A stretch of DNA of 64,000 nt from Halopseudomonas laoshanensis (GTDB taxonomy: Bacteria; Pseudomonadota; Gammaproteobacteria; Pseudomonadales; Pseudomonadaceae): positions 1 through 64,000 of the forward strand of contig NZ_QOVF01000003.1 of the NCBI RefSeq assembly GCF_008365385.1, in the 5' to 3' direction. The notes beneath the pieces are model-generated. The model was not told where the DNA came from and searched no databases. It was given only the letters and a program-made list of their open reading frames with translations. Each line of letters opens with the position of its first letter. Position 1 is the stretch's first letter. Below are positions 319 through 11,114 of the stretch, piece after piece. A program made the position numbers and the translations under genes.

Positions 319-1008
319 CTATACCGAAAGGTAACGACTGATATGTGCGCGGTCGATCTGATCGCCGCTGGCTTCGTGGACTATATGCCCCTTGTCGATT
401 ACCAGCATACGGTCGGACACGGCCAACGCGAAGCTGAGCACCTGTTCGGAAACCACAATGCTGATTTTGCGCAGCTGCTTGATCTCGTTCAGGGTGGTCG
501 CCAGCTGCTTGATGATCGAAGGTTGAATACCTTCGGTAGGCTCATCCAGCAACAGGATCTTCGGGTCTGCGGCCAGCGCCCGACCAATAGCCAGCTGTTG
601 CTGCTGACCGCCCGAGAGGTTACCCGCTTTGCGATGGCGCATTTCAAGCAGTACCGGGAACAACTCATAGATGTCATCCGGCACCTTCTTGCGCCCGGAG
701 GCCTCCAGACCAGCCATGATGTTTTCTTCCACCGTCAGCGTCGGAAACACCATACGCCCCTGCGGGACGTAGGCTATGCCACTTGCTACACGCTGGTAGG
801 ACTGCGCCTTGCTCAGCTCCTTGCCATTGAAGGTAATCTCCCCGCTGCTGCTGGGATGCATGCCAATCAATGATTTGAACAGGGTAGTCTTGCCCATCCC
901 GTTGCGACCCATGATCGCCACCGTTTCGTTCTCACCAACATCCAGCGAGATACCATGGATGACTTCGCTCATGCCGTAACTTACCCGCAGATCACGAACC
1001 GTCAGCAT
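319..1008 (-). CDS. urtE: Urea/short-chain amide ABC transporter, ATP-binding subunit UrtE
   Basis: A 229-residue LivF-type ATPase of the HAAT branched-amide transporter family. Visible motifs are Walker A GRNGMGKT (residues 34-41), signature LSGGQQQQ (near 130) and Walker B ILLLDEPTEG. It should energise uptake through UrtBC at the inner membrane. It is last in urtABCDE, 15 bp behind urtD, with a strong AAGGAGG ribosome site before the ATG. The urt family was defined on urea, but no urease gene is nearby and the divergent operon hydrolyses amides, so formamide or acetamide may be the true substrate (inference). Confidence 0.9.
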   Translation of the reverse strand: MLTVRDLRVSYGMSEVIHGISLDVGENETVAIMGRNGMGKTTLFKSLIGMHPSSSGEITFNGKELSKAQSYQRVASGIAYVPQGRMVFPTLTVEENIMAGLEASGRKKVPDDIYELFPVLLEMRHRKAGNLSGGQQQQLAIGRALAADPKILLLDEPTEGIQPSIIKQLATTLNEIKQLRKISIVVSEQVLSFALAVSDRMLVIDKGHIVHEASGDQIDRAHISRYLSV

Positions 1009-1023
1009 AGTTGCCTCCTTATA

Positions 1024-1764
1024 TTAGTGGCCAAGGTACACCTCGATGACCTTCTCGTTATTCTGCACGTCTTCCATCTTGCCTTCGGCCAGCAACTTGC
1101 CCTGATGCAGAACAGTAACCTTGTTGGCAATGTCCTTAACGAAGTCCATGTCATGCTCGATGACGATCACCGAGCGGTTGTTGCTGATACGCCGCAACAG
1201 GTCCGCCGTGGCTTCGCGTTCGGAAACGCTCATGCCGGCAACTGGCTCATCGAGCATCAATAGCTCCGGGTCCTGGATCAGCAGCATGCCGATTTCCAAC
1301 CACTGTTTCTGGCCGTGACTCAGCAGGCCCGCACTGGTTTCCAGCTTGTCGGACAGGAAGATTTCGCCGGCCACCTCGCGGACGCGCTCGGTGACTTTTT
1401 CAGTCACCTTGAAGAACAAACTTCCGAATACCGTGCGCCCGCCAGGGTAGGAAAGCTGTAAATTCTCCCGCACGGTCAGGTTTTCATAGATAGAAGGGGT
1501 CTGGAACTTGCGCCCGACCCCGGCCTTGACGATCTGATTCTCGGCCAGCTTGGTCAGCTCGGTATTCTTGAACATGATGGAACCAGACGACGCCCTGGTC
1601 TTGCCGCATATCAAGTCAAGCAGTGTGGTCTTACCGGCGCCATTTGGACCGATCACCACGCGCACCTCGTTACGCTCAACGTAGAGATTCAATCCATCGA
1701 CCGCCTTGAAGCCATCGAATGAAACGGTCAGATCTTCAATTGCCAAGAGTATCGGCGACGTCAT
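1024..1764 (-). CDS. urtD: Urea/short-chain amide ABC transporter, ATP-binding subunit UrtD
   Basis: A 246-residue LivG-type ATPase with Walker A GPNGAGKT (39-46), signature LSHGQKQWLEIG and Walker B LLMLDEPVAGMS. The LSHGQ form in place of LSGGQ is characteristic of UrtD proteins. The reading frame is open further upstream, but the ATG at 1764 is the likely start: it overlaps the urtC stop in an ATGA, and the extension is only urtC DNA in another frame. It pairs with UrtE as the ATPase dimer. Confidence 0.9.
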   Translation of the reverse strand: MTSPILLAIEDLTVSFDGFKAVDGLNLYVERNEVRVVIGPNGAGKTTLLDLICGKTRASSGSIMFKNTELTKLAENQIVKAGVGRKFQTPSIYENLTVRENLQLSYPGGRTVFGSLFFKVTEKVTERVREVAGEIFLSDKLETSAGLLSHGQKQWLEIGMLLIQDPELLMLDEPVAGMSVSEREATADLLRRISNNRSVIVIEHDMDFVKDIANKVTVLHQGKLLAEGKMEDVQNNEKVIEVYLGH

Positions 1765-2897
1765 GACTGCACCTCCTGGGCGATAGCGGTTTGGCTGGAC
1801 TTCTTGCGTTTCCGGCCAAACACCCCGTCCAGACGCGGCTGGACGAAATCGGTATAGATGCCGGCCAGACCTCGCGGGAACAATAGAACAACGCCAATAA
1901 ACAGCGCGCCCATAAATACGATCCACAGCTGCGGGAAGGTTTCCGAAAGCATGGTCTTGGCCAGGTTAACCAGCAGCGCACCGTAGACCGCACCTATCAA
2001 CGACAGCCGCCCACCGACCGCACAGAAAATCACCATTTCGATCGACGCCACGGTGCCGACAAAGGACGGCGACATGAAGCCGACCTGCAGCGCGAACATG
2101 GCGCCGCCGATGGCGGAAAACACCCCGGCCAACGCGAAGACGAAGATCTTGATATTGGCCACGTCATAGCCGGAGAAGCGCACGCGGTCTTCCTGGTCGC
2201 GCATCGCAATCAGCAGCTTGCCGAACCGACTGTTGAGCACAAATTGACCGATCAGCAAACAGATGATCAAGGCTACGCAGCAGACAAAGTAGAGGATGTA
2301 ACGGGCGCTATCGGAACGTATGTCCCAGCCCAACAGCGTACGCAGGTCGGTGATGCCATTGATCCCACCGGTGTAACCCTGCTGGCCGATGATCAAGATC
2401 GTTGCGATGGAGGCGATCGCCTGGGTAATGATGGCGAAATACACCCCACCCACCCGCCGCTTGAACATCGCGAAACCGATAATGAACGCCACAATCGCCG
2501 GCACGGTAAGGATCAATACAATCGTCAGAAACAGACTGTTGAACGGCATCCACATCATCGGCAACTCGGTGATTTGGTTCCAGTCCATGAAGTCCGGAAT
2601 GCCGGGTGTGCTCTGAATCGAGGTGAACTCGGGCGCTGACGACTCCAGCTTGAGAAACATCGCCATGCAGTAACCACCAAGACCAAAGAAGATCCCCTGA
2701 CCCAGGCTCAGAATGCCGCCATAACCCCAGCACAACACCAGACCCACGGCGACAAAGGCGTAGGTCAGATATTTGCCCAGCAGGTTGAGGCGGAAAATAT
2801 CCAGCGTCAAAGGCAGGATCACCATCAACAGCACGGCCAGCGCCAGCAACTGCAGCAGGCGTTGCCCTCCCCCGAATGCTGCTATCCATCTGTGCAT
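1761..2897 (-). CDS. urtC: Urea/short-chain amide ABC transporter, permease UrtC
   Basis: A 378-residue LivM-type permease with about ten hydrophobic segments, beginning near residue 12, and a basic C-terminal tail rich in RKRKK. I chose the ATG at 2897 because a GGAGGT ribosome site lies seven bases before it. A TTG nine codons upstream would abut the urtB stop and has no such site. It forms the membrane channel with UrtB and overlaps urtD by four bases, so the two are translationally coupled. Confidence 0.9.
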   Translation of the reverse strand: MHRWIAAFGGGQRLLQLLALAVLLMVILPLTLDIFRLNLLGKYLTYAFVAVGLVLCWGYGGILSLGQGIFFGLGGYCMAMFLKLESSAPEFTSIQSTPGIPDFMDWNQITELPMMWMPFNSLFLTIVLILTVPAIVAFIIGFAMFKRRVGGVYFAIITQAIASIATILIIGQQGYTGGINGITDLRTLLGWDIRSDSARYILYFVCCVALIICLLIGQFVLNSRFGKLLIAMRDQEDRVRFSGYDVANIKIFVFALAGVFSAIGGAMFALQVGFMSPSFVGTVASIEMVIFCAVGGRLSLIGAVYGALLVNLAKTMLSETFPQLWIVFMGALFIGVVLLFPRGLAGIYTDFVQPRLDGVFGRKRKKSSQTAIAQEVQS

Positions 2898-2924
2898 ATC
2901 AATAACCTCCAGCTGGCACGCCAA

Positions 2925-3848
2925 TCACCGGCGTACCTTGCTTGCAAAGAGTCCCTGGGGACGAACCATCAGAATGCCGACCACAACCGTGAGGGTGATG
3001 ACCTTGGCCATGGAACCGCTGAGGAAGAACTCGAGTATCGATTGCGACTGGGCGATACCGAATGCTGAAACCACTGTGCCAAGAATGCTGGCTGCACCGC
3101 CGAACACCACGACGAGGAAGGTATCGACGATATACAGCGATCCGGTGGTCGGTCCGGTGGAGGCGATAGTGGTGAAGGCCGCACCGGCAACACCGGCGAT
3201 TCCGCAACCCAAGGCAAAGGTAAAGCGGTCGACCCGCTGGGTATTGATACCCGCAGCATTGGCCATCGCACGATTCTGCGTGGTCGCGCGCACCTTGATA
3301 CCCCAGCGCGATTTGTACAGCAGGATGACGACGCCCAGGGTAATGAAGAAGGTGATGCCCATGACGAACATGCCGTTCATTGGAATATCGATAATGTCGG
3401 TAGGTGCCCAGGAGCCCATCAACCAGCCAGGCAAACTGACACTGACCTCGCGCGGGCCGAAACCGGAGCGGAAGGCCTGTTGCATGATAAGACCCAACCC
3501 CCAGGTCGCCAGCAAGGTATCCAACGGCCGGTTGTACAGCAGCCTGATCATGAAACGCTCGACCAGGTAGCCCAAAATAAAGGTTCCCGTAAAAGCCGCC
3601 AGTATGGCGATAGGGAAATAAATGTGCTCCATCCAGGGCCAGATACTGGTACCCAGCTCAGACACCAACCAGGTGATATAGGCGCCCAAGGTTAGAAATT
3701 CACCGTGGGCCATATTGATCACGCCCATTTGTCCAAAAATGATCGCCAGACCCAACGCCATCAACAGGAATACGCAAAACAAGCTAAGCCCGCTAAAGCC
3801 CTGCATAACAAAGATGGCCGTGAGCTCCTGCGAGGAATATCCGCCCAT
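2925..3848 (-). CDS. urtB: Urea/short-chain amide ABC transporter, permease UrtB
   Basis: A 307-residue LivH-type permease. The first membrane segment carries ALGLAIIFGQMGVINMAHGE, the GQ..vinmAHGE motif typical of this family. Several further membrane segments follow and the C-terminus is RPQGLFASKVRR. The ATG at 3848 has AAGGAG upstream. It lies 75 bp behind urtA, with a short hairpin in the gap that may give the binding protein a higher transcript level than the membrane subunits. Confidence 0.9.
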   Translation of the reverse strand: MGGYSSQELTAIFVMQGFSGLSLFCVFLLMALGLAIIFGQMGVINMAHGEFLTLGAYITWLVSELGTSIWPWMEHIYFPIAILAAFTGTFILGYLVERFMIRLLYNRPLDTLLATWGLGLIMQQAFRSGFGPREVSVSLPGWLMGSWAPTDIIDIPMNGMFVMGITFFITLGVVILLYKSRWGIKVRATTQNRAMANAAGINTQRVDRFTFALGCGIAGVAGAAFTTIASTGPTTGSLYIVDTFLVVVFGGAASILGTVVSAFGIAQSQSILEFFLSGSMAKVITLTVVVGILMVRPQGLFASKVRR

Positions 3849-3923: not shown

Positions 3924-5168
3924 TTATTGGTAACCTTCTGGGAAGGGGTTCGGTTCGATCAGCTCAGACTCGTAAACGACCTTGGCTTGACCATCGGCCT
4001 GCCACTCGCCTACGCGCAACTTGCTCCACAGGTGATGGTTTTCGTGAACTTTCACGTATCCTTCAGGCGCAGTTGTCAGCTCGATATCTGGAGAGGCCGC
4101 TGCAACATCATCCACATCGAAGCTACCTGCTTTCTCAACTGCGGCTTTCCACAACCAGGGGCCAAGATAGGCGGCCTGAGTTACGTCACCAATCACGCTG
4201 TCTTCACCCCAACGCGCCTTGAACGCCTTGACGAACTCGGAGTTGTTGTCGTTTTCCAGCGACTGGAAGTACTTCATGGAGGAGTAGAAACCCACCATAT
4301 TCTCGCCACCGATGCCCAGTACTTCGTCTTCGGTTACAGAGATGGTCATGATGGTCTGGCGGTCAGCAGTGATGCCGGCAGCATTCAGCTGCTTCCACCA
4401 GGCGACGTTGGAGCCACCGACAATGCTGGAATACACCACGTCAGGCTTTTTAAGACGGATCTTGTTGATCAGCGAACCGAAGTTGGTGTTGCCCAGCGGG
4501 TAGTACTCTTCCCCTACAACGGTGCCGCCCAGGACGTTTTCGATATGCTTGCGGGCGATCTTGTTCGAGGTGCGTGGCCAGATATAGTCAGAGCCGACCA
4601 GGTAGAAGGTCTTGGCATCTTTCTCTTTGGCGATCCAGTCCAGACCGGCAAGAATCTGCTGAGTGGCTTCCTGGCCGGTGTAAATTACGTTCTTGGACTG
4701 CTCCAGCCCTTCATAGAAAGTCGGGTAGTAGAGCATGCCGTTTTCTTTTTCGAAGACCGGCAACACGGCCTTGCGTGACGCAGATGTCCAGCAACCGAAT
4801 ACCGCGGCAACCTTGTCCTGGGTCAGCAGCTTGCGCGATTTTTCCGCGAAGGTCGGCCAGTCACTGGCGCCATCTTCCTGCACGATTTCGATCTGCCGGC
4901 CAAGTACGCCACCCATCGCGTTGATCTGTTCAATCGCCAGCATTTCTGCCTCGACCGAACCAGTTTCGCTGATGGCCATGGTGCCGGTAATGGAGTGCAG
5001 AATGCCGACCTTGACGGTGTCATCGGTCACGGCCAGGCCGGTGGTATTGACCTGATCGGTAGGGAAATCTGCCGCGCCGGCGAGGCCGGTGAAGCCTAAA
5101 CCAGAGCCCAGCGCCAACGCCAACACATGGCGCTTCCAGGCGGGCATCTTGCGTATTGATTCGTGCAT
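3924..5168 (-). CDS. urtA: Urea/short-chain amide ABC transporter, periplasmic binding protein UrtA
   Basis: A 414-residue type-1 periplasmic binding protein. Residues 1-35 form a signal peptide (basic start, hydrophobic LALALGSGLGFTGLAGA, cleavage after AGA-A). The mature part begins with VKVGILHSITGTMAISE and contains YYPTFYEGLEQ and GEEYYPLG, characteristic of the UrtA/FmdD group. The ATG at 5168 is preferred over 35 extra upstream codons because GGAG precedes it and the signal peptide then starts correctly. It is the first gene of the operon, read from a sigma-54 promoter at 5248-5263. Ligand specificity (urea or amides) cannot be read from the sequence. Confidence 0.9.
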   Translation of the reverse strand: MHESIRKMPAWKRHVLALALGSGLGFTGLAGAADFPTDQVNTTGLAVTDDTVKVGILHSITGTMAISETGSVEAEMLAIEQINAMGGVLGRQIEIVQEDGASDWPTFAEKSRKLLTQDKVAAVFGCWTSASRKAVLPVFEKENGMLYYPTFYEGLEQSKNVIYTGQEATQQILAGLDWIAKEKDAKTFYLVGSDYIWPRTSNKIARKHIENVLGGTVVGEEYYPLGNTNFGSLINKIRLKKPDVVYSSIVGGSNVAWWKQLNAAGITADRQTIMTISVTEDEVLGIGGENMVGFYSSMKYFQSLENDNNSEFVKAFKARWGEDSVIGDVTQAAYLGPWLWKAAVEKAGSFDVDDVAAASPDIELTTAPEGYVKVHENHHLWSKLRVGEWQADGQAKVVYESELIEPNPFPEGYQ

Positions 5169-5247
5169 AGGGTGGTTCTCCTTGATGTGGGTAAAACTGA
5201 CCAGCAAACCCATCTCCCCAGTTCGCCAGCCTGTCACCACACCCCTG

Positions 5248-5263
5248 AGCAACCCTTGTGCCA
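5248..5263 (-). promoter_or_regulatory. Sigma-54 promoter of urtA
   Basis: The minus strand reads TGGCACA-AGGG-TTGCT, matching the -24/-12 consensus (TGGCACR N4 TTGCW) completely. The predicted start of transcription is near 5237, giving a leader of about 70 nt before urtA. A dedicated enhancer-binding protein is therefore required. Confidence 0.85.
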
Positions 5264-5314
5264 TCAACGCCAAATGGCCATAAAAGAATTACGTATTTTA
5301 TTTAAATGGCTATT

Positions 5315-5327
5315 TATCAATGACCTG
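5315..5327 (+). promoter_or_regulatory. Possible IHF site on the urtA side
   Basis: TATCAATGACCTG matches the IHF consensus WATCAA N4 TTR with one mismatch and follows an AT-rich tract (5281-5314). It lies between the palindromic activator sites and the urtA promoter, where DNA bending would help a sigma-54 activator. The consensus is loose, so confidence is low. Confidence 0.35.
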
Positions 5328-5395
5328 CACGCGCCCTCCGCACCGAGGCGCGCGCTTCCTCCTTCAGCGAGAATGTTAGCCCTCACAAGGCGATC

Positions 5396-5440
5396 TGACA
5401 TTGTCATGACATTGTCAGCCGCAAGCCCGTGACATTGTCA
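5396..5440. promoter_or_regulatory. Triple palindrome TGACATTGTCA, candidate activator (UAS) sites
   Basis: Three exact copies of the 11-bp palindrome TGACA-T-TGTCA start at 5396, 5407 and 5430; the first two touch head to tail. A degenerate copy (TGACAATAACTG) follows near 5462. They lie between the two divergent sigma-54 promoters, at about -120 to -154 from the predicted fmdA start and -164 to -198 from the urtA start, the usual range for enhancer-binding proteins. The candidate binder is the NifA-like regulator encoded at 7314-8954 (inference). Confidence 0.8.
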
Positions 5441-5485
5441 CATCGGCCTGGATCCCCAATATGACAATAACTGACCATCCAATCG

Positions 5486-5498
5486 CAACAGACTGATT
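5486..5498 (-). promoter_or_regulatory. Possible IHF site on the fmdA side
   Basis: The minus strand reads AATCAGTCTGTTG, one mismatch from WATCAA N4 TTR. It lies between the palindromes and the fmdA sigma-54 promoter, mirroring the site on the urtA side. It is weak on its own; the symmetry is what makes it worth recording. Confidence 0.3.
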
Positions 5499-5528
5499 AA
5501 CAACGATTTTTACCATGCATGACAAAGC

Positions 5529-5544
5529 TGGCACGGCATCTGCT
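5529..5544 (+). promoter_or_regulatory. Sigma-54 promoter of fmdA
   Basis: TGGCACG-GCAT-CTGCT matches the -24/-12 consensus with a single C-for-T change at the first base of the TTGCW element; the GG-to-GC spacing is the required 10 bp. The predicted transcription start is near 5555, 54 bp before the fmdA ATG. Confidence 0.8.
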
Positions 5545-5608
5545 CTGCTGATTGCACTGGCCCATATCCGGCCTTGAACGCCATCACCCACACAGAGGAT
5601 TCATCGTC

Positions 5609-6838
5609 ATGGCTGAGACATTGATCAAGATCGATCTGAACAAGAGCCCCAAGGAACACGACATCATCCATAACCGCTGGCACCCGGACGTTCCGATGGT
5701 CGCGACCGTGAAGCCAGGCGATGACTTCATCATCGAATGCATGGATTGGACCGGCGGGCAGATCGAAAACAATGACAGCGCTGATGACGTGCGCGACGTG
5801 GACCTGAGCAAGGTGCACTACCTGAGCGGCCCAGTGGCTGTAGAAGGTGCCGAACCAGGCGACTTGATGGTGGTCGATATTCTCGACCTCGGCGCCTTCG
5901 CCGACCAGATGTGGGGCTTTAACGGCGTATTCGCCAAGGAAAACGGTGGCGGCTTCCTGACCGAACATTTCCCTGAAGCACGCAAGACAATCTGGGATTT
6001 CAATGGCATCTATACCAAGTCTCGGCATATCCCCGGCGTCGAATTTATTGGCCTGATGCACCCCGGCCTGATCGGTTGCCTGCCGTCACAGGAACTGCTG
6101 GACGAATGGAACAAGCGTGAGCAGGCGCTGATCGATACCGATCCGGATCGCGTACCTGGCCTGGCCAACCCACCCTATGCACCCACTGCTCACGTTGGCC
6201 GCGCCACCGGTGACGTTGCGGCGAAAATCGCCAACGAAGGCGCGCGCACCGTGCCGCCGCGTGAACACGGCGGCAACTGTGACATCAAGGACCTGACCAA
6301 AGGCTCACGGGTATTCTTCCCGGTGTATGTGAAAGGCGGTGGGCTGTCGATGGGTGACCTGCACTTCTCTCAGGGCGACGGCGAAATCACCTTCTGCGGC
6401 GCGATTGAAATGGCTGGCTGGATCCATATTCGCGTCAACCTGATCAAGGACGGGGTAAAGAAATACGGTGTGAAGAACCCGATCTTCCAGCCCAGCGACA
6501 TGGCACCCAGCTACAAGAAACACCTGATCTTCGAAGGCATCTCGGTCGACGAAAGCGGCAAACAGCATTACCTGGATGCGCACGTTGCCTACCGCCAGGC
6601 GTGTCTGAACGCGATCGAGTATCTGAAGAAGTTCGGTTTCAGTGGCGCCCAGGCGTACTCCCTGCTCGGCACTGCGCCGGTACAAGGGCATATCAGCGGG
6701 ATTGTCGACGTACCCAACGTCTGCGCCACCCTGTGGATCCCCACCGAGATATTCGACTTCGACATCATGCCCAACGCCGACGGCCCGACCATCTCGGTCA
6801 ACAGCCCGGAAGTGCCCACATCGAAGTGGAACAAGTAG
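5609..6838 (+). CDS. fmdA: Formamidase
   Basis: A 409-residue member of the FmdA/AmdA acetamidase-formamidase family, which hydrolyses formamide to formate and ammonia in the cytoplasm. It contains the family stretch PPREHGGNCDIKDLTKGSRVFFPVYVKG (about 230-257), the GDLHFSQGDGE motif that follows, and AYSLLGTAPVQGHISGIVDVPN near the C-terminus. The length is normal for the family. The ATG at 5609 follows an AGAGGA ribosome site; 19 upstream in-frame codons overlap the promoter region and are excluded. First gene of the plus-strand amide operon, read from the sigma-54 promoter at 5529. Confidence 0.92.
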   Translation: MAETLIKIDLNKSPKEHDIIHNRWHPDVPMVATVKPGDDFIIECMDWTGGQIENNDSADDVRDVDLSKVHYLSGPVAVEGAEPGDLMVVDILDLGAFADQMWGFNGVFAKENGGGFLTEHFPEARKTIWDFNGIYTKSRHIPGVEFIGLMHPGLIGCLPSQELLDEWNKREQALIDTDPDRVPGLANPPYAPTAHVGRATGDVAAKIANEGARTVPPREHGGNCDIKDLTKGSRVFFPVYVKGGGLSMGDLHFSQGDGEITFCGAIEMAGWIHIRVNLIKDGVKKYGVKNPIFQPSDMAPSYKKHLIFEGISVDESGKQHYLDAHVAYRQACLNAIEYLKKFGFSGAQAYSLLGTAPVQGHISGIVDVPNVCATLWIPTEIFDFDIMPNADGPTISVNSPEVPTSKWNK

Positions 6839-6875: not shown

Positions 6876-6907
6876 ACCCCCTCGTTCGCACGCCCAGGGA
6901 GCATTTT

Positions 6908-7231
6908 ATGCCCTTATACGATTTTGATTGCCCACAATGCGGCGGCTTCGAAGCGCTGCTACCCAGTGCCGAACGCAACCTGCCGCGCGATTGCCCGGCC
7001 TGTGGCCAGCCCATGCAGCGCCTGATCAGCGCTCCGCGCCTGCAGGTCCTCAGTTCACAGCAACGCACTGCGCATGAGACCAATGAACGTAGCGCTCACC
7101 AACCCAAGGTCAGCCACGGGCACAGTTGTTGCAGCTCTGGAAGCTGCACTCATAAACCCCGTGAGGACGGTCAACCGCCCGCCCTCAAGCAGCAGAGTGG
7201 CCCGCGTCGTCCATGGATGATCAGTCACTGA
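6908..7231 (+). CDS. fmdB: FmdB-type zinc-ribbon protein
   Basis: A 107-residue protein beginning MPLYDFDCPQCG, the FmdB/CxxC_CxxC_SSSS regulatory-domain signature. Two CxxC pairs (Cys8/Cys11 and Cys29/Cys32) should bind one zinc. The tail has another cysteine cluster (HGHSCCSSGSC), unusual but seen in longer members. FmdB was named as a putative regulator in amide operons; its molecular role is not settled. The ATG at 6908 is preceded by AGGGAG. It lies 69 bp behind fmdA, in the same operon. Confidence 0.85.
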   Translation: MPLYDFDCPQCGGFEALLPSAERNLPRDCPACGQPMQRLISAPRLQVLSSQQRTAHETNERSAHQPKVSHGHSCCSSGSCTHKPREDGQPPALKQQSGPRRPWMISH

Positions 7232-7313: not shown

Positions 7314-8954
7314 GTGATAACCCTATCAGATCGGACATCCCAGCAGATGAAGCGTGAATTGGTCGTTATTCTGGAAATGGCCAAGCTGTTGGAGAAGCCG
7401 TTGGACGCCCCGCGCACCATCCAGGGGATTCTGCGGCTACTGGCGCAGCTGTACGGTCTGAACTGCGGCAGGGTCAGCCTGCCAATCACTGCCACCAACA
7501 GTCTGGAAGTACGCTACTCCTACGGCCTGGCACCGGAAGATCTGAAGGCCGGCCGCTTCAACTTGAACATCAATCAGGGTGTCACCGGCTATGTGATGCG
7601 CACCGGATCGATCGGCCTGGTGCCGGATGTCAGCAAGGAGCCGCTGTTTATTTACCGAGTGGCTGAGCTGTCCAATCATACCGGCGGGCGCATGACCTTT
7701 ATTGCCGTGCCCATTCTGGAGTCCGGCACACCCATCGGCGTGCTCTCGGTACAGCGCGAAGGCCTGCACGAGCGCCCGTTCGATGACGATATCAGCCTGC
7801 TGCGCATCGCCGCCTCAATGATTGGCCAGGTACTGCGCATTCATCAGTTCGTGGTGGATCAGACCGCGCATCTGGTCAAGGAAAACCAGCATCTCAGGCA
7901 CAGTATCGCGGTCGAGGCGATGCTCAAACAAAGCCTGGCGCATGGGATTCTGGGCACCAGTCCGGCGCTGATGGATGCGGTGCGCTCGACTATCCAGGTC
8001 GCTCGCAGCGATGCTCCGGTCATGCTCCTGGGCGAGTCCGGCACCGGCAAGGAGAAATTTGCGCGCATGACCCACCAGCAGAGCGACCGGCGCGAGAAGC
8101 CGTTTATCTGCATCAACTGCGCGGCGATTCCCGCAGAATTACTCGAATCCGAACTCTTCGGCCACGCCAAGGGCGCCTTTACCGGGGCCTCACAAGCCAA
8201 GCAGGGCAAGATTCTGCAGGCCGACGGCGGCACCCTGTTTCTCGACGAAATCGGCGACATGCCCCTGGCCTTGCAGGCCAAGCTGCTGCGCGTATTGCAG
8301 GAGAAGAAGGTCGACCCGGTCGGCAGTGATCACGCCATCTCGGTGGATTTTCGGGTGATCACCGCGACGCACGTCAACTTGCAGGAATCGGTCAATCAGG
8401 GCCGCTTCCGCCTGGATCTGTTCTACCGCCTGCACGTGGTCCCGGTGCACCTGCCACCACTGCGCGAGCGGCAGGACGACATACGCCAATTGGCTCTGCA
8501 CTTTCTCAATGAGCTCAACCACCACTACGAGCGCAACTGGAGCCTGGAAGCCGACGCCTTCGAAATTCTCGAACGCTTCGACTGGCCGGGCAATATCCGC
8601 CAGTTGCAGAACGTGCTGGAACGCACCGCGCTGACCAGCGACGCAGATTCGCTGAGCGGCGACAAGATCAAGCGCAGTCTCTCTTCGGAAAGCGCGATCA
8701 ATCTGCCGCAGCATATCCAGCACGAAAAAGCCCCTAACCCTGCACCGGCAGAGCTGGCCAGCCAGCCGCTGAGCGTTAACGGTCAACGGCCCTACGGGCG
8801 TTCATATAACTGGGTGAACCAGGATGAAGCAGCGCATATCCGCGCCATGCTGGTCGACACCAACAATAACCAGTCCGAGGCGGCCAGGCGCCTGAATATC
8901 AGCCTCAGACAATTGCGCTACCGGGTCAGCAAGCTGGGTATCGACCTGCACTGA
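7314..8954 (+). CDS. NifA-like sigma-54-dependent activator of the amide cluster
   Basis: A 546-residue enhancer-binding protein. Domains: N-terminal GAF sensor (about 25-175), AAA+ domain (about 205-435) with Walker A GESGTGKE (240-247), the sigma-54 contact loop GAFTGA (287-292) and Walker [12 protein letters not shown], then a linker and a Fis-type helix-turn-helix ([24 protein letters not shown], near the end). There is no receiver domain, so a small ligand sensed by GAF is more likely than phosphorylation. The start is a GTG with AAGGAG ten bases before it. Its position between fmdB and amiE, and two sigma-54 promoters at 5248 and 5529, make it the likely regulator of the island. The effector is unknown. 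Confidence 0.9.
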
Positions 8955-8987: not shown

Positions 8988-10034
8988 ATGCGTCATGGAG
9001 ATATATCAAGCAGCCCCGATACCGTTGGTGTTGCCGTAGTCAATTACAAGATGCCGCGGCTGCACACCCGCGATGATGTATTGGCCAACGCCCGCAATAT
9101 CGCCGAGATGATCATCGGCATGAAACAGGGTTTGCCGGGTATGGACCTGGTGGTGTTTCCGGAATACAGCACCATGGGCATCATGTACGACCACGATGAA
9201 ATGATGGCCACGGCCGCGACCATTCCCGGTGATGAAACGCGCATTTTCAGCGAAGCCTGCAAGCAGGCAAAAACCTGGGGTATTTTTTCCCTGACCGGCG
9301 AGCAGCATGAAGAACATCCGCACAAGGCACCCTATAACACTCTGGTACTGATCAATGATCAGGGCGAGATAGTACAGAAATACCGCAAGTGCATACCCTG
9401 GTGCCCGATCGAAGGCTGGTACCCCGGTGACCGCACTTATGTATCCGACGGCCCCAAGGGCATGAAGATCAGCCTGATCATCTGTGATGATGGCAACTAT
9501 CCGGAAATCTGGCGGGACTGCGCGATGAAGGGCGCCGAGCTGATCGTGCGCTGCCAGGGCTATATGTACCCGGCCAAGGAACAGCAGGTGATGATGGCCA
9601 AGAGCATGGCCTGGGCCAACAATTGTTATGTCGCGGTGGCCAATGCCAGCGGCTTCGATGGCGTGTACTCCTACTTCGGCCACTCGGCAATTATCGGCTT
9701 CGACGGTCGCACGCTGGGTGAATGCGGTGAAGAGGATATGGGTATTCAGTACGCCCAGCTGTCGGTATCGCAGATCCGCGATGCGCGGGCCAATGATCAG
9801 TCACAGAACCACCTGTTCAAACTGCTGCACCGTGGCTACACCGGTGTGTACAACTCCGGTGATGGTGATCGCGGCGTTGCCGATTGCCCATTCGACTTTT
9901 ACCGCACCTGGGTACTGGATGCGGAAAAGGCCCGCGATGATGTGGAGAAAATGACCCGCAGCACCATCGGCGTGAAGGATTGCCCGGTCGGTGAACTGCC
10001 GCATCCGGGCAAGGACAAGGAAGCCGGCGCCTGA
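8988..10034 (+). CDS. amiE: Aliphatic amidase
   Basis: A 348-residue nitrilase-superfamily amidase, close in length to P. aeruginosa AmiE (346). The catalytic triad falls at the family positions: Glu59 (VVFPEYS), Lys134 (KYRKCIPW) and Cys166 (LIICDDG). It hydrolyses short amides such as acetamide to the acid and ammonia. The paralogue AmiF is a formamidase of the same fold, but the sequence reads as AmiE ([27 protein letters not shown]). GGAGG precedes the ATG. Unlike the classical ami operon, no amiC, amiR or amiS follows; control is likely by the sigma-54 regulator directly upstream. Confidence 0.95.
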
Positions 10035-10055: not shown

Positions 10056-11114
10056 ATGCCGTTTATCAATGAAGTGCTGGAGCACAATCAGCGCATGGGC
10101 GGCAGCACGCCGCCCATGCGCCAGTCGCGCTTTCAGTTCGATCTGGACAAAGTCATGCAGTCGCTGCGCTCGCGCATCACCGGTCAGGGTGCGGCGCTGG
10201 ATGCTATCGCCGCGAGCCTGGCCCTGACCAAAGCTGAGCTGGGCGACCCGAGAAAGCCCCTGGCGGTAATGTTATTGATGGGGCCAACAGGGGTGGGCAA
10301 AACCGAAACCGTGCGCCTGCTCGCCGAGGCCATTCATGGCCGCGCCGATGCGCTGTGCCGCATCGACATGAATACTTTGGCCCAGGAACATTACGCTGCC
10401 TCACTCACCGGCGCGCCGCCAGGTTATGTTGGCAGCAAGGAGGGCAATACACTATTTGATCGCGAGGCCATCGAGGGCAGCTTCGGCAAACCCGGCATCG
10501 TGCTGTTTGACGAGCTGGAAAAGGCCAGTGAACCGGTGATCCGCGCACTGATGAACATCTTCGACAACGGCCAGCTAAGGCTCAGCTCAGGCACCAGCAC
10601 CCTCGACTTCCGCAACAGTCTGATTTTCATGACCAGTAACGTCGGCGCTCAATCACTCTGGGCCTGGCAACAGCGCCAGCAAAGTGGCTGGCGGCGTTGG
10701 TTACCCGAAGCCTGGCGCGCTCGACAAGAGCAGAAGCATCAACAACTGGCTCTTGAGAAGGCCTTTGCACCGGAATTTCTCAACCGTATTGACCAGCAAC
10801 TGATTTATCAGCGCCTGGGCGACGATCAGATAATGATTCTGGTGGAACTGGCTTTGCAGCGGCTGAATAATCGCCTGGCCCGGCATCAGGTCCAGTTGGT
10901 GGCGCAACCGCAGCTCAAGTCGTGGCTCGGCCAGCAGGGATTTGACCGACGCTATGGCGCGCGCGCCATGGCCCGCAGCTTCCGCCAACACCTCGAGCCG
11001 GAGGTGGCTCGCGCATTGTTGCAAACTCCCGATCGCCCGCCAGGCTGCCTGCTGTTGGCTGATATGGATGCGCAACACAGGGTGAGATTGACCCTGAAAG
11101 GCCCGGACGATTGA
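10056..11114 (+). CDS. amiB: AmiB, Clp/Hsp100-like AAA+ ATPase of the amidase operon
   Basis: A 352-residue single-ring AAA+ protein resembling the second ATPase domain of ClpA/ClpB. It has Walker A GPTGVGKT (76-83), Walker B IVLFDELEKA, the sensor-1 stretch FMTSNVG, and a C-terminal D2-small domain ending in YGARAMARSFRQ. There is no Clp N-domain and no obvious ClpP-binding loop. AmiB accompanies amiE in P. aeruginosa; its client is not established and chaperoning the amidase or transporter is only a suggestion. The gene starts 21 bp after amiE and is the last of the operon, before a bidirectional terminator. Confidence 0.88.
   Translation: MPFINEVLEHNQRMGGSTPPMRQSRFQFDLDKVMQSLRSRITGQGAALDAIAASLALTKAELGDPRKPLAVMLLMGPTGVGKTETVRLLAEAIHGRADALCRIDMNTLAQEHYAASLTGAPPGYVGSKEGNTLFDREAIEGSFGKPGIVLFDELEKASEPVIRALMNIFDNGQLRLSSGTSTLDFRNSLIFMTSNVGAQSLWAWQQRQQSGWRRWLPEAWRARQEQKHQQLALEKAFAPEFLNRIDQQLIYQRLGDDQIMILVELALQRLNNRLARHQVQLVAQPQLKSWLGQQGFDRRYGARAMARSFRQHLEPEVARALLQTPDRPPGCLLLADMDAQHRVRLTLKGPDD

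What the first reader, a model, noticed from the sequence alone, without database searches (positions are those of the whole stretch)
5169..5608. Symmetric divergent sigma-54 control region with a triple 11-bp palindrome driving an amide transporter and amide hydrolases
The sequence shows consensus sigma-54 promoters facing both ways (5248-5263 minus, 5529-5544 plus), three exact TGACATTGTCA palindromes between them (5396, 5407, 5430) and a possible IHF site on each side (5315 and 5486). The layout is promoter-IHF-activator sites-IHF-promoter. A NifA-like activator gene lies in the right-hand operon. The palindrome is not the NtrC (GCACC/GGTGC) or NifA (TGT-N10-ACA) site, so it may be a new enhancer element for one activator turning on uptake and hydrolysis together.
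Basis: partly seen in the sequence, partly recalled or inferred. Interest (0 to 1): 0.85.

Follow-up and report, generated by a model that had tools for sequence, protein, structure and literature searches.

The report
Shared enhancer for amide-scavenging genes
Between two back-to-back sets of genes for taking up and breaking down small nitrogen compounds lie three copies of a short mirror-image DNA word that, judging by relatives, is the docking site of one activator protein that switches both sets on together; the general kind of switch is well known, but this activator and its docking word look undescribed.

Summary
In 15 of 15 readable same-genus loci with the regulator the three sites (0-2 mismatches), both boxes and the spacing (11 bp; 23 bp, once 22) are kept. 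Same-genus fmdA genes without it lack the core (0 of 8). In three other genomes with amide-clade regulators (48-49% identical) the urtA/fmdA gap, read only after the prediction, holds the palindrome between outward sigma-54 boxes (3 of 3). Distant members with other neighbours carry its core GACAWTGTC 71-115 bp upstream of 13 of 37 sigma-54-like sites, against 0 of 24 in control loci; 11 of 31 members show no core. Best reading: the GAF-AAA+-Fis regulator, below the NifA and NorR cut-offs, binds the sites and drives both operons. Binding and signal are untested; only one IHF-like site is moderately supported. One palindrome equals E. coli matS, but MatP is absent (0 of 37).

The parts
5396..5406 (.). 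Palindrome 1, TGACATTGTCA, proposed activator site
   Evidence: present at 0-2 mismatches in 15 of 15 readable same-genus loci
5407..5417 (.). Palindrome 2, TGACATTGTCA, abuts palindrome 1 (11 bp centre to centre)
   Evidence: present at 0-1 mismatches in 15 of 15
5430..5440 (.). Palindrome 3, TGACATTGTCA (with flanks GTGACATTGTCAC, identical to the E. coli matS consensus), 23 bp from palindrome 2
   Evidence: present at 0-2 mismatches in 15 of 15; matS consensus from PMC8669397 passages
5248..5263 (-). Sigma-54 promoter (-24/-12) of the urtABCDE operon
   Evidence: 14 of 16 columns invariant in 15 loci
5529..5544 (+). Sigma-54 promoter (-24/-12) of the fmdA operon
   Evidence: 11 of 16 columns invariant in 15 loci
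5486..5498 (-). IHF-like site between palindromes and fmdA promoter (1 mismatch)
   Evidence: best match at the same offset in 12 of 15 loci, 3 perfect; moderate support
5315..5327 (+). Possible IHF-like site between palindromes and urtA promoter (1 mismatch)
   Evidence: best match at a similar offset in 7 of 15 loci; columns not better conserved than the rest; weak
3924..5168 (-). urtA, substrate-binding protein of a urea-type ABC transporter
   Evidence: TIGR03407 537.1 bits, cut-off 492.75
319..3848 (-). urtB, urtC, urtD, urtE (2925-3848, 1761-2894, 1024-1803, 319-1008)
   Evidence: TIGR03409, 03408, 03411, 03410 all over cut-off
5609..6838 (+). fmdA, formamidase
   Evidence: NF045496 768.7 bits, cut-off 500
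6902..7231 (+). fmdB-like zinc-ribbon protein
   Evidence: PF09723, TIGR02605
7314..8954 (+). Regulator gene, third of the right-hand operon: GAF + sigma-54 AAA+ + Fis-type HTH, proposed to bind the palindromes and to be autoactivated
   Evidence: PF01590, PF00158, PF02954; below the NifA and NorR equivalog cut-offs; clade
8988..10034 (+). Aliphatic amidase (AmiE-like)
   Evidence: NF009802/PRK13286 714.3 bits, cut-off 427
10056..11114 (+). Short ClpB-D2-like AAA+ protein (AmiB-like by recall), last gene of the cluster
   Evidence: PF07724, PF10431; next to the amidase in 14 of 14 other same-genus loci with the regulator that reach it (L040 ends before it) and in 3 of 3 loci without the regulator that were looked at

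Best explanation
The 440-bp gap is a bidirectional sigma-54 control region. A one-component enhancer-binding protein encoded by the third gene of the right-hand operon (7314-8954; GAF sensor, AAA+ ATPase with a GAFTGA loop, Fis-type HTH) binds as dimers to the three palindromes, which sit on roughly one face of the helix (11 and 23 bp apart). Three dimers on three sites would seed the hexameric ATPase ring, as three enhancer sites do for NorR. DNA bending, probably by IHF on the right-hand side, brings the ring to sigma-54 RNA polymerase at either promoter, so uptake (urtABCDE) and hydrolysis (fmdA, amidase) rise together and the regulator gene is autoactivated. The core of the site, GACAWTGTC, is probably an old operator of a wider family of such activators with other target operons. 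Shown by sequence comparison: sites, promoters, their conservation, co-occurrence with the regulator, and the same operator near several distant relatives. Inferred: that this protein binds them, hexamer seeding, IHF bending, and the signal (amide, urea or nitrogen status read by the GAF domain).
For: Three exact sites, 0 of 100 shuffles reach three. 15 of 15 readable same-genus orthologous loci keep all three positions (0-2 mismatches; the central five bases CAWTG are kept in 45 of 45 sites), spacings 11 bp in 15 of 15 and 23 bp in 14 of 15 (22 in one); majority identity 0.91-0.96 in palindromes and promoters against 0.63 in the rest. The tandem CAWTGTCATGNCAWTGTC without mismatch: 14 of 16 genomes with the orthologue (of the other two, one has it at 2 mismatches, one contig is broken there), always at this locus, and 0 of 21 same-genus genomes without it. 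0 of 8 same-genus fmdA genes without the orthologue have the core or a divergent sigma-54 pair within 600 bp upstream. Test of a prediction: the urtA/fmdA gaps of G449 and G116 (regulator beside urt genes) and of G197 (chosen from the tree) were read only after the hypothesis was made; 3 of 3 hold an exact TGACAWTGTCA between outward sigma-54 boxes, two with a further copy at one mismatch (the fmdA box of G116 fits only a looser promoter pattern). G392 (57% identical regulator) has an exact palindrome 114 bp upstream of a sigma-54-like box before urtA (box TGGCCTGATCCTTGCT seen by eye, not by the pattern). Core GACAWTGTC: 24 in 369,626 bp of 25 distant family loci, against 16 in 1,069,342 bp of 80 loci of other activators; 13 of 37 sigma-54-like sites have it 71-115 bp upstream, against 0 of 24 (Fisher p 8e-4). 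Marinobacter shengliensis plasmid pMAD49a: three cores centred 93-117 bp upstream of a sigma-54 box. NorR precedent: PMC2941729 passages.
Against: No binding or expression data. Only 4 of 15 loci have all three palindromes exact. 11 of 31 family members outside the genus (39-49% identical) show no exact core in the DNA held: L190, L198, L201, L205, L207, L208, L049, L030, L222, L223, L225, so the operator is not universal. G178 has divergent urtA/fmdA with a sigma-54 box and no core in the 4.2-kb locus; its regulator (43%) lies in a sister clade and on another contig. In G392 the fmdA side has no exact core. The loci counted include close relatives (L192/L195/L197; L047/L048), so the p-value is too small. 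In at least three of the eight control fmdA loci fmdA is the last gene of a co-directional cluster, so its promoter may lie elsewhere; the urtA upstream region was held for only one of them, L243, and has no core. Another protein that travels with the cluster could bind the sites.
Confidence: 0.87

Rival explanations
1. The palindromes are matS-like sites that organise the chromosome terminus through MatP, with no role in transcription.
For: Palindrome 3 with its flanks, GTGACATTGTCAC, is identical to the E. coli matS consensus given in PMC8669397 (passages).
Against: MatP (PF06303) is found in 0 of 37 genomes of the genus while the control search finds it in E. coli. Only 1 of the 3 palindromes here matches GTGACRNYGTCAC, and only 3 of 15 loci have such a match. 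Three of the genome's eight exact copies lie in one promoter gap.
Confidence: 0.01
2. A different regulator, not encoded in the cluster (for example a second activator or a repressor), binds the palindromes.
For: Binding was not tested. Five exact copies occur elsewhere in the genome; one begins 16 bp before a sigma-54 box of a second urea-type operon, and one belongs to a tandem pair before a thiolase operon where no sigma-54 box was seen.
Against: The tandem tracks the presence of this regulator across the genus (14 of 16 with, 0 of 21 without, at no mismatch) and the palindrome follows the regulator's amide clade in other families. Exact NtrC-type dyads are absent in 15 of 15 loci. The site at the second urea operon is seen in 3 of 28 loci only.
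Confidence: 0.08
3. The activator uses the palindromes for one promoter only (fmdA side), and urtA is driven by another activator through its own sigma-54 box.
For: The palindrome centres lie 94, 117 and 128 bp from the fmdA -24 box but 138, 149 and 172 bp from the urtA one, and only the fmdA side has a moderately conserved IHF-like site.
Against: A sigma-54 box is found on each side in 15 of 15 loci. On the urtA side the alignment shows no long conserved block besides the box, a CCTGT in the leader and the ribosome-binding stretch. G392 has the palindrome directly before urtA.
Confidence: 0.15

Closest known systems
NorR-norVW (E. coli), a GAF-AAA+-Fis activator with three enhancer sites in a divergent intergenic region
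   Same: GAF and AAA+ domains, sigma-54 dependence, three sites upstream of the promoter that in NorR scaffold the higher-order oligomer (PMC2941729 passages).
   Different: Below the NorR equivalog cut-off (331.1 of 476 bits); different targets; site is TGACA-N-TGTCA, not the GT-N7-AC form recalled for NorR; nitric oxide sensing not implied.
NifA and its upstream activator sequences
   Same: Best equivalog hit (TIGR01817, 438.6 bits), GAF-AAA+-Fis architecture; IHF-assisted sigma-54 activation (recalled).
   Different: Under the curated cut-off of 528.85 bits; TGT-N10-ACA (recalled; the NifA paper looked into prints no such string) absent in the window and in 14 of 15 loci; targets are amide and urea genes.
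fmd cluster of Methylophilus methylotrophus (fmdCABDEF)
   Different: The putative positive regulator named in the passage is part of fmdCABDEF; a sigma-54 activator with tandem palindromes is not mentioned in the passages seen.
matS (MatP binding site)
   Same: Palindrome 3 plus flanks is the E. coli matS consensus letter for letter (PMC8669397, passages).
   Different: No MatP in the genus (0 of 37); three copies in one promoter region.

Membership tests
Sigma-54 enhancer-binding proteins | Sigma54_activat AAA+ domain with GAFTGA loop and Fis-type HTH | tested here: met
   PF00158 E 3.2e-70, PF02954 E 1.9e-9; GAFTGA seen in the alignment
Sigma-54 promoters | GG-N10-GC boxes on both sides, conserved | tested here: met
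   both sides in 15 of 15 loci
NifA | Score over the NCBIfam equivalog cut-off | tested here: not met
   TIGR01817 438.6 against 528.85 bits
NifA | TGT-N10-ACA upstream sites (recalled) | tested here: not met
   0 in the window, 1 of 15 loci
NorR | Score over the NCBIfam equivalog cut-off | tested here: not met
   NF003451 331.1 against 476 bits
NorR | Three enhancer sites needed for assembly of the oligomer | tested here: inconclusive
   Three sites present in 15 of 15 loci; need for all three not testable here
NtrC regulon | GCAC...GTGC dyads (recalled) | tested here: not met
   0 of 15 intergenic regions, exact form only
MatP/matS | MatP encoded in the genome | tested here: not met
   0 of 37 genomes, E. 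coli control positive
Regulator family described here (GACAWTGTC) | Regulator inside the 47-row clade and core upstream of a sigma-54 box | tested here: met
   tree 100/99; but 11 of 31 members outside the genus show no core in the DNA held
Regulator family described here (GACAWTGTC) | Regulator binds the core | not testable with these tools
   needs footprint or EMSA

The most novel reading that the evidence does not exclude
GACAWTGTC is the common operator of an unrecognised family of GAF-type sigma-54 activators in Pseudomonadota that control scavenging of small carbon-nitrogen compounds: amides and urea here; elsewhere ABC transporter plus OsmC, acyl-CoA-dehydrogenase-like and rubredoxin reductase operons (with a cyanase on a Marinobacter plasmid). 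Arrays of two or three such sites can serve two sigma-54 promoters at once.
Probability: 0.45. Interest if true: 0.65.

Novelty: new member of a known kind. Interest (0 to 1): 0.55.

Why it matters
It gives a testable operator and regulator to formamide, amide and urea uptake clusters; the review passages seen describe such control only in Aspergillus nidulans, Methylophilus methylotrophus and Helicobacter pylori (PMC10781810). It also offers an operator motif by which uncharacterised NifA-like regulators, annotated on the plasmids merely as 'sigma 54-interacting', might be linked to their targets. The compact three-site array between two sigma-54 promoters is a natural case for asking whether three dimer sites are needed to build one activator ring and whether one array can serve two promoters. 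A practical warning: palindrome 3 is a perfect E. coli matS, so tests in E. coli should use a matP deletion.

Tried and rejected
Chance repeat: rejected (and conservation).

NtrC or NifA sites: no exact match found, except one TGT-N10-ACA in 1 of 15 loci. matS: rejected although palindrome 3 matches it.

Second regulon member at the allophanate hydrolase-GntR-urt operon (L051): a TGACAATGTCA begins 16 bp before its sigma-54 box, but in only 3 of 28 same-genus loci, all from close relatives; two of the 28 (L136, L156) are cut short and not reliably read. A sigma-54 box of this pattern is found in 11 of the 28, 6 of them in genomes without the orthologous regulator. Not accepted as a conserved member. 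A genus-wide search for the core followed by a 62-92 base gap and a sigma-54 box gave 10 of 37 genomes, all at the fmdA locus; wider gaps were not searched. An earlier version of that pattern had one N too many in the promoter and its 0 of 37 is void.

Thiolase operon with a tandem pair (L001, L052): the pair is in 2 of 8 loci, one 1-mismatch site in a third, none in five; no sigma-54 box seen; left open.

The one genome-contig scan used patterns common to sigma-54 activators and brought 80 loci of other activators; they served only as the control set, and 12 of the 80 as the outgroup.

Full report
What is there. The gap 5169-5608 separates urtA (minus) from fmdA (plus). It contains three exact TGACATTGTCA palindromes at 5396, 5407 and 5430 and sigma-54 boxes at 5248-5263 (minus) and 5529-5544 (plus). 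TGACAWTGTCA has no other occurrence in the 64 kb; shuffled windows average 0.03. In the 4.1-Mb genome the exact word TGACATTGTCA occurs eight times, three of them here. To the left lie urtABCDE, all five over the urea-transporter model cut-offs; to the right fmdA (formamidase), an FmdB-like zinc ribbon, a GAF-AAA+-Fis regulator, an aliphatic amidase and a short ClpB-D2-like AAA+ protein. rpoN is in the genome. No call names the organism.

Conservation within the genus. A search of 144 genomes (own included) found 22 with a match to the regulator at E 1e-90 or better; 16 of these, the window's own included, are same-genus orthologues at 81-100% identity. Fifteen of the 16 loci include the whole gap (in G017 the contig starts in it and it was left out). 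The window and the 14 others were aligned. All three palindromes are present in all 15 at 0-2 mismatches (27 of 45 sites exact, 16 with one mismatch, 2 with two); all three are exact in 4 of 15 loci. CAWTG in the centre never varies, and the central base is T in 34 and A in 11 of 45 sites, as fits a symmetric site. Spacing is 11 bp in 15 of 15 and 23 bp in 14 of 15, 22 in one. Majority identity is 0.96, 0.91 and 0.95 in the palindromes, 0.95 and 0.92 in the promoters and 0.63 in the remaining 349 positions. The right-hand IHF-like site is the best match at one offset in 12 of 15 (3 perfect, 7 with one mismatch, 2 with two); the left-hand one at a similar offset in 7 of 15, with columns no better conserved than the rest.

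Link to the regulator. The tandem CAWTGTCATGNCAWTGTC without mismatch is found in 14 of the 16 genomes with the orthologue, always here, and in 0 of the 21 genus genomes without it; at up to two mismatches it is common background (32 of 37 genomes). Of these 21, eight carry another fmdA (76-77% identical); in the 600 bp upstream none has the core or a divergent sigma-54 pair (0 of 8; two have loose sigma-54-like boxes on the fmdA strand). In the three of these eight that I looked at more widely, urtABCDE, amidase, AAA+ protein and fmdA lie in one direction, without regulator, core or strict sigma-54 box; the region upstream of urtA is held only in L243. So the genus holds two versions of the cluster, and the palindromes belong to the version with the regulator.

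Outside the genus. Homologues at 42-57% identity and E 1e-110 or better were found in 20 of 368 other genomes drawn from the class, and 2 further ones in the phylum draw of 398. A tree of 59 sequences (47 of this family and 12 of the 80 other activators) puts the 47 together (100/99), and within them an amide clade of 20 (100/99): the 16 of the genus plus those of G392, G449, G116 and G197. The urtA/fmdA gaps of G449 and G116 (picked because the regulator lies beside urt genes) and of G197 (picked from the tree) were read only after the prediction. All three held outward-facing sigma-54 boxes with an exact TGACAWTGTCA between them, two with a further copy at one mismatch (23 or 30 bp away); the fmdA box of G116 fits only a looser pattern. 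About 0.003 exact matches would be expected by chance in the two larger stretches (own arithmetic). G392 has the palindrome between regulator and urtA, 114 bp before a sigma-54-like box seen by eye, but no exact core on its fmdA side.

The family operator. Several other members have other neighbours: ABC transporters with an NMT1_2-type binding protein, OsmC, acyl-CoA-dehydrogenase-like and rubredoxin/FAD reductase proteins, or a YgaP-TM protein. GACAWTGTC occurs 24 times in 369,626 bp of 25 such loci; seven control 9-mers of the same form give 0 to 8. In 80 loci of other sigma-54 activators it occurs 16 times in 1,069,342 bp. Thirteen of 37 sigma-54-like sites in the family loci, in 10 of 25 loci, have a core centred 71-115 bp upstream; in the control loci 0 of 24 (Fisher p 8e-4). 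Some family rows are near-copies, so the p-value is generous. The named case is plasmid pMAD49a of Marinobacter shengliensis: regulator 45% identical, three cores centred 93-117 bp upstream of the box before OsmC, one more 76 bp before the transporter's box, a fifth away from any box, and a cyanase gene next to the cluster. Against this, 11 of 31 members outside the genus show no exact core in the DNA held, including the Caballeronia and Klebsiella plasmids (39-40% identical) but also some at 44-49%. G178 is a counter-example by gene content, a divergent urtA/fmdA pair with a sigma-54 box and no core; its regulator sits in a sister clade.

How it probably works. A dimer of the Fis-type HTH on each palindrome, three dimers on roughly one face of the helix, a hexameric AAA+ ring, and looping to sigma-54 polymerase at either promoter. 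NorR is the precedent for three enhancer sites as a scaffold (PMC2941729, passages). The regulator gene lies inside the activated operon, so positive feedback would follow. The inducer is unknown; [quoted passage not shown]

Alternatives. MatP is ruled out by its absence although palindrome 3 with flanks is the E. coli matS (PMC8669397, passages). Exact NtrC dyads are absent, and TGT-N10-ACA occurs in 1 of 15 loci only. Control of one side only remains possible, since the urtA box is farther from the array.

Literature. Ten searches of the open-licence PMC library gave no paper, by title and abstract start in the rows listed, that describes this regulator family or operator. One search found 295 papers with one of four letter strings and listed 40; the rest were not seen; other searches were also capped, and most subscription journals are not held. 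Passages only were seen of PMC4641369, PMC8669397, PMC2941729, PMC10781810 and PMC6925177. Novelty is therefore likely but not proven.

Verdict. A real, conserved, functional-looking control region; a new regulator-operator pair of a well-known kind.

Noticed in passing
L051:9756-9787 (G000 contig C9): A single TGACAATGTCA beginning 16 bp before a sigma-54 box, ahead of an allophanate hydrolase-GntR-second urt operon; seen in 3 of 28 same-genus loci only. So close to the -24 box that it might repress rather than activate.
   Followed up: partly
L052:7973-8028 (G000 contig C1): Tandem TGACGTTGTCATGACAATGTCA, again 11 bp apart, before a thiolase and 3-hydroxyacyl-CoA dehydrogenase operon, no sigma-54 box seen; same in G026, one 1-mismatch site in G011, none in five other loci.
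   Followed up: partly
window 5230-5234: CCTGT, invariant in 15 of 15 aligned gaps, in the leader of urtA just downstream of its sigma-54 box; unexplained.
   Followed up: no
window 10056-11114: Short ClpB-D2-like AAA+ protein travels with the amidase both in clusters with the regulator (14 of 14 other loci that reach it) and in three co-directional clusters without it; recalls AmiB of the Pseudomonas ami operon (recalled).
   Followed up: partly
L242, L243, L244: Three same-genus genomes without the orthologous regulator carry urtABCDE-amidase-AAA+-fmdA in one direction with no core: the same enzymes under another control.
   Followed up: partly
L047, L048, L200, L192, L195, L197, L221: Recurrent neighbours of this regulator family: OsmC and acyl-CoA-dehydrogenase-like proteins, in some also an ABC transporter with an NMT1_2-type binding protein and a rubredoxin/FAD reductase; on a Marinobacter plasmid a cyanase follows. 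Substrate unknown.
   Followed up: partly
L223: A Klebsiella pneumoniae wastewater plasmid carries a 39% identical regulator next to nitrile hydratase, a carbon-nitrogen hydrolase and two ABC transporters; no exact core found.
   Followed up: no
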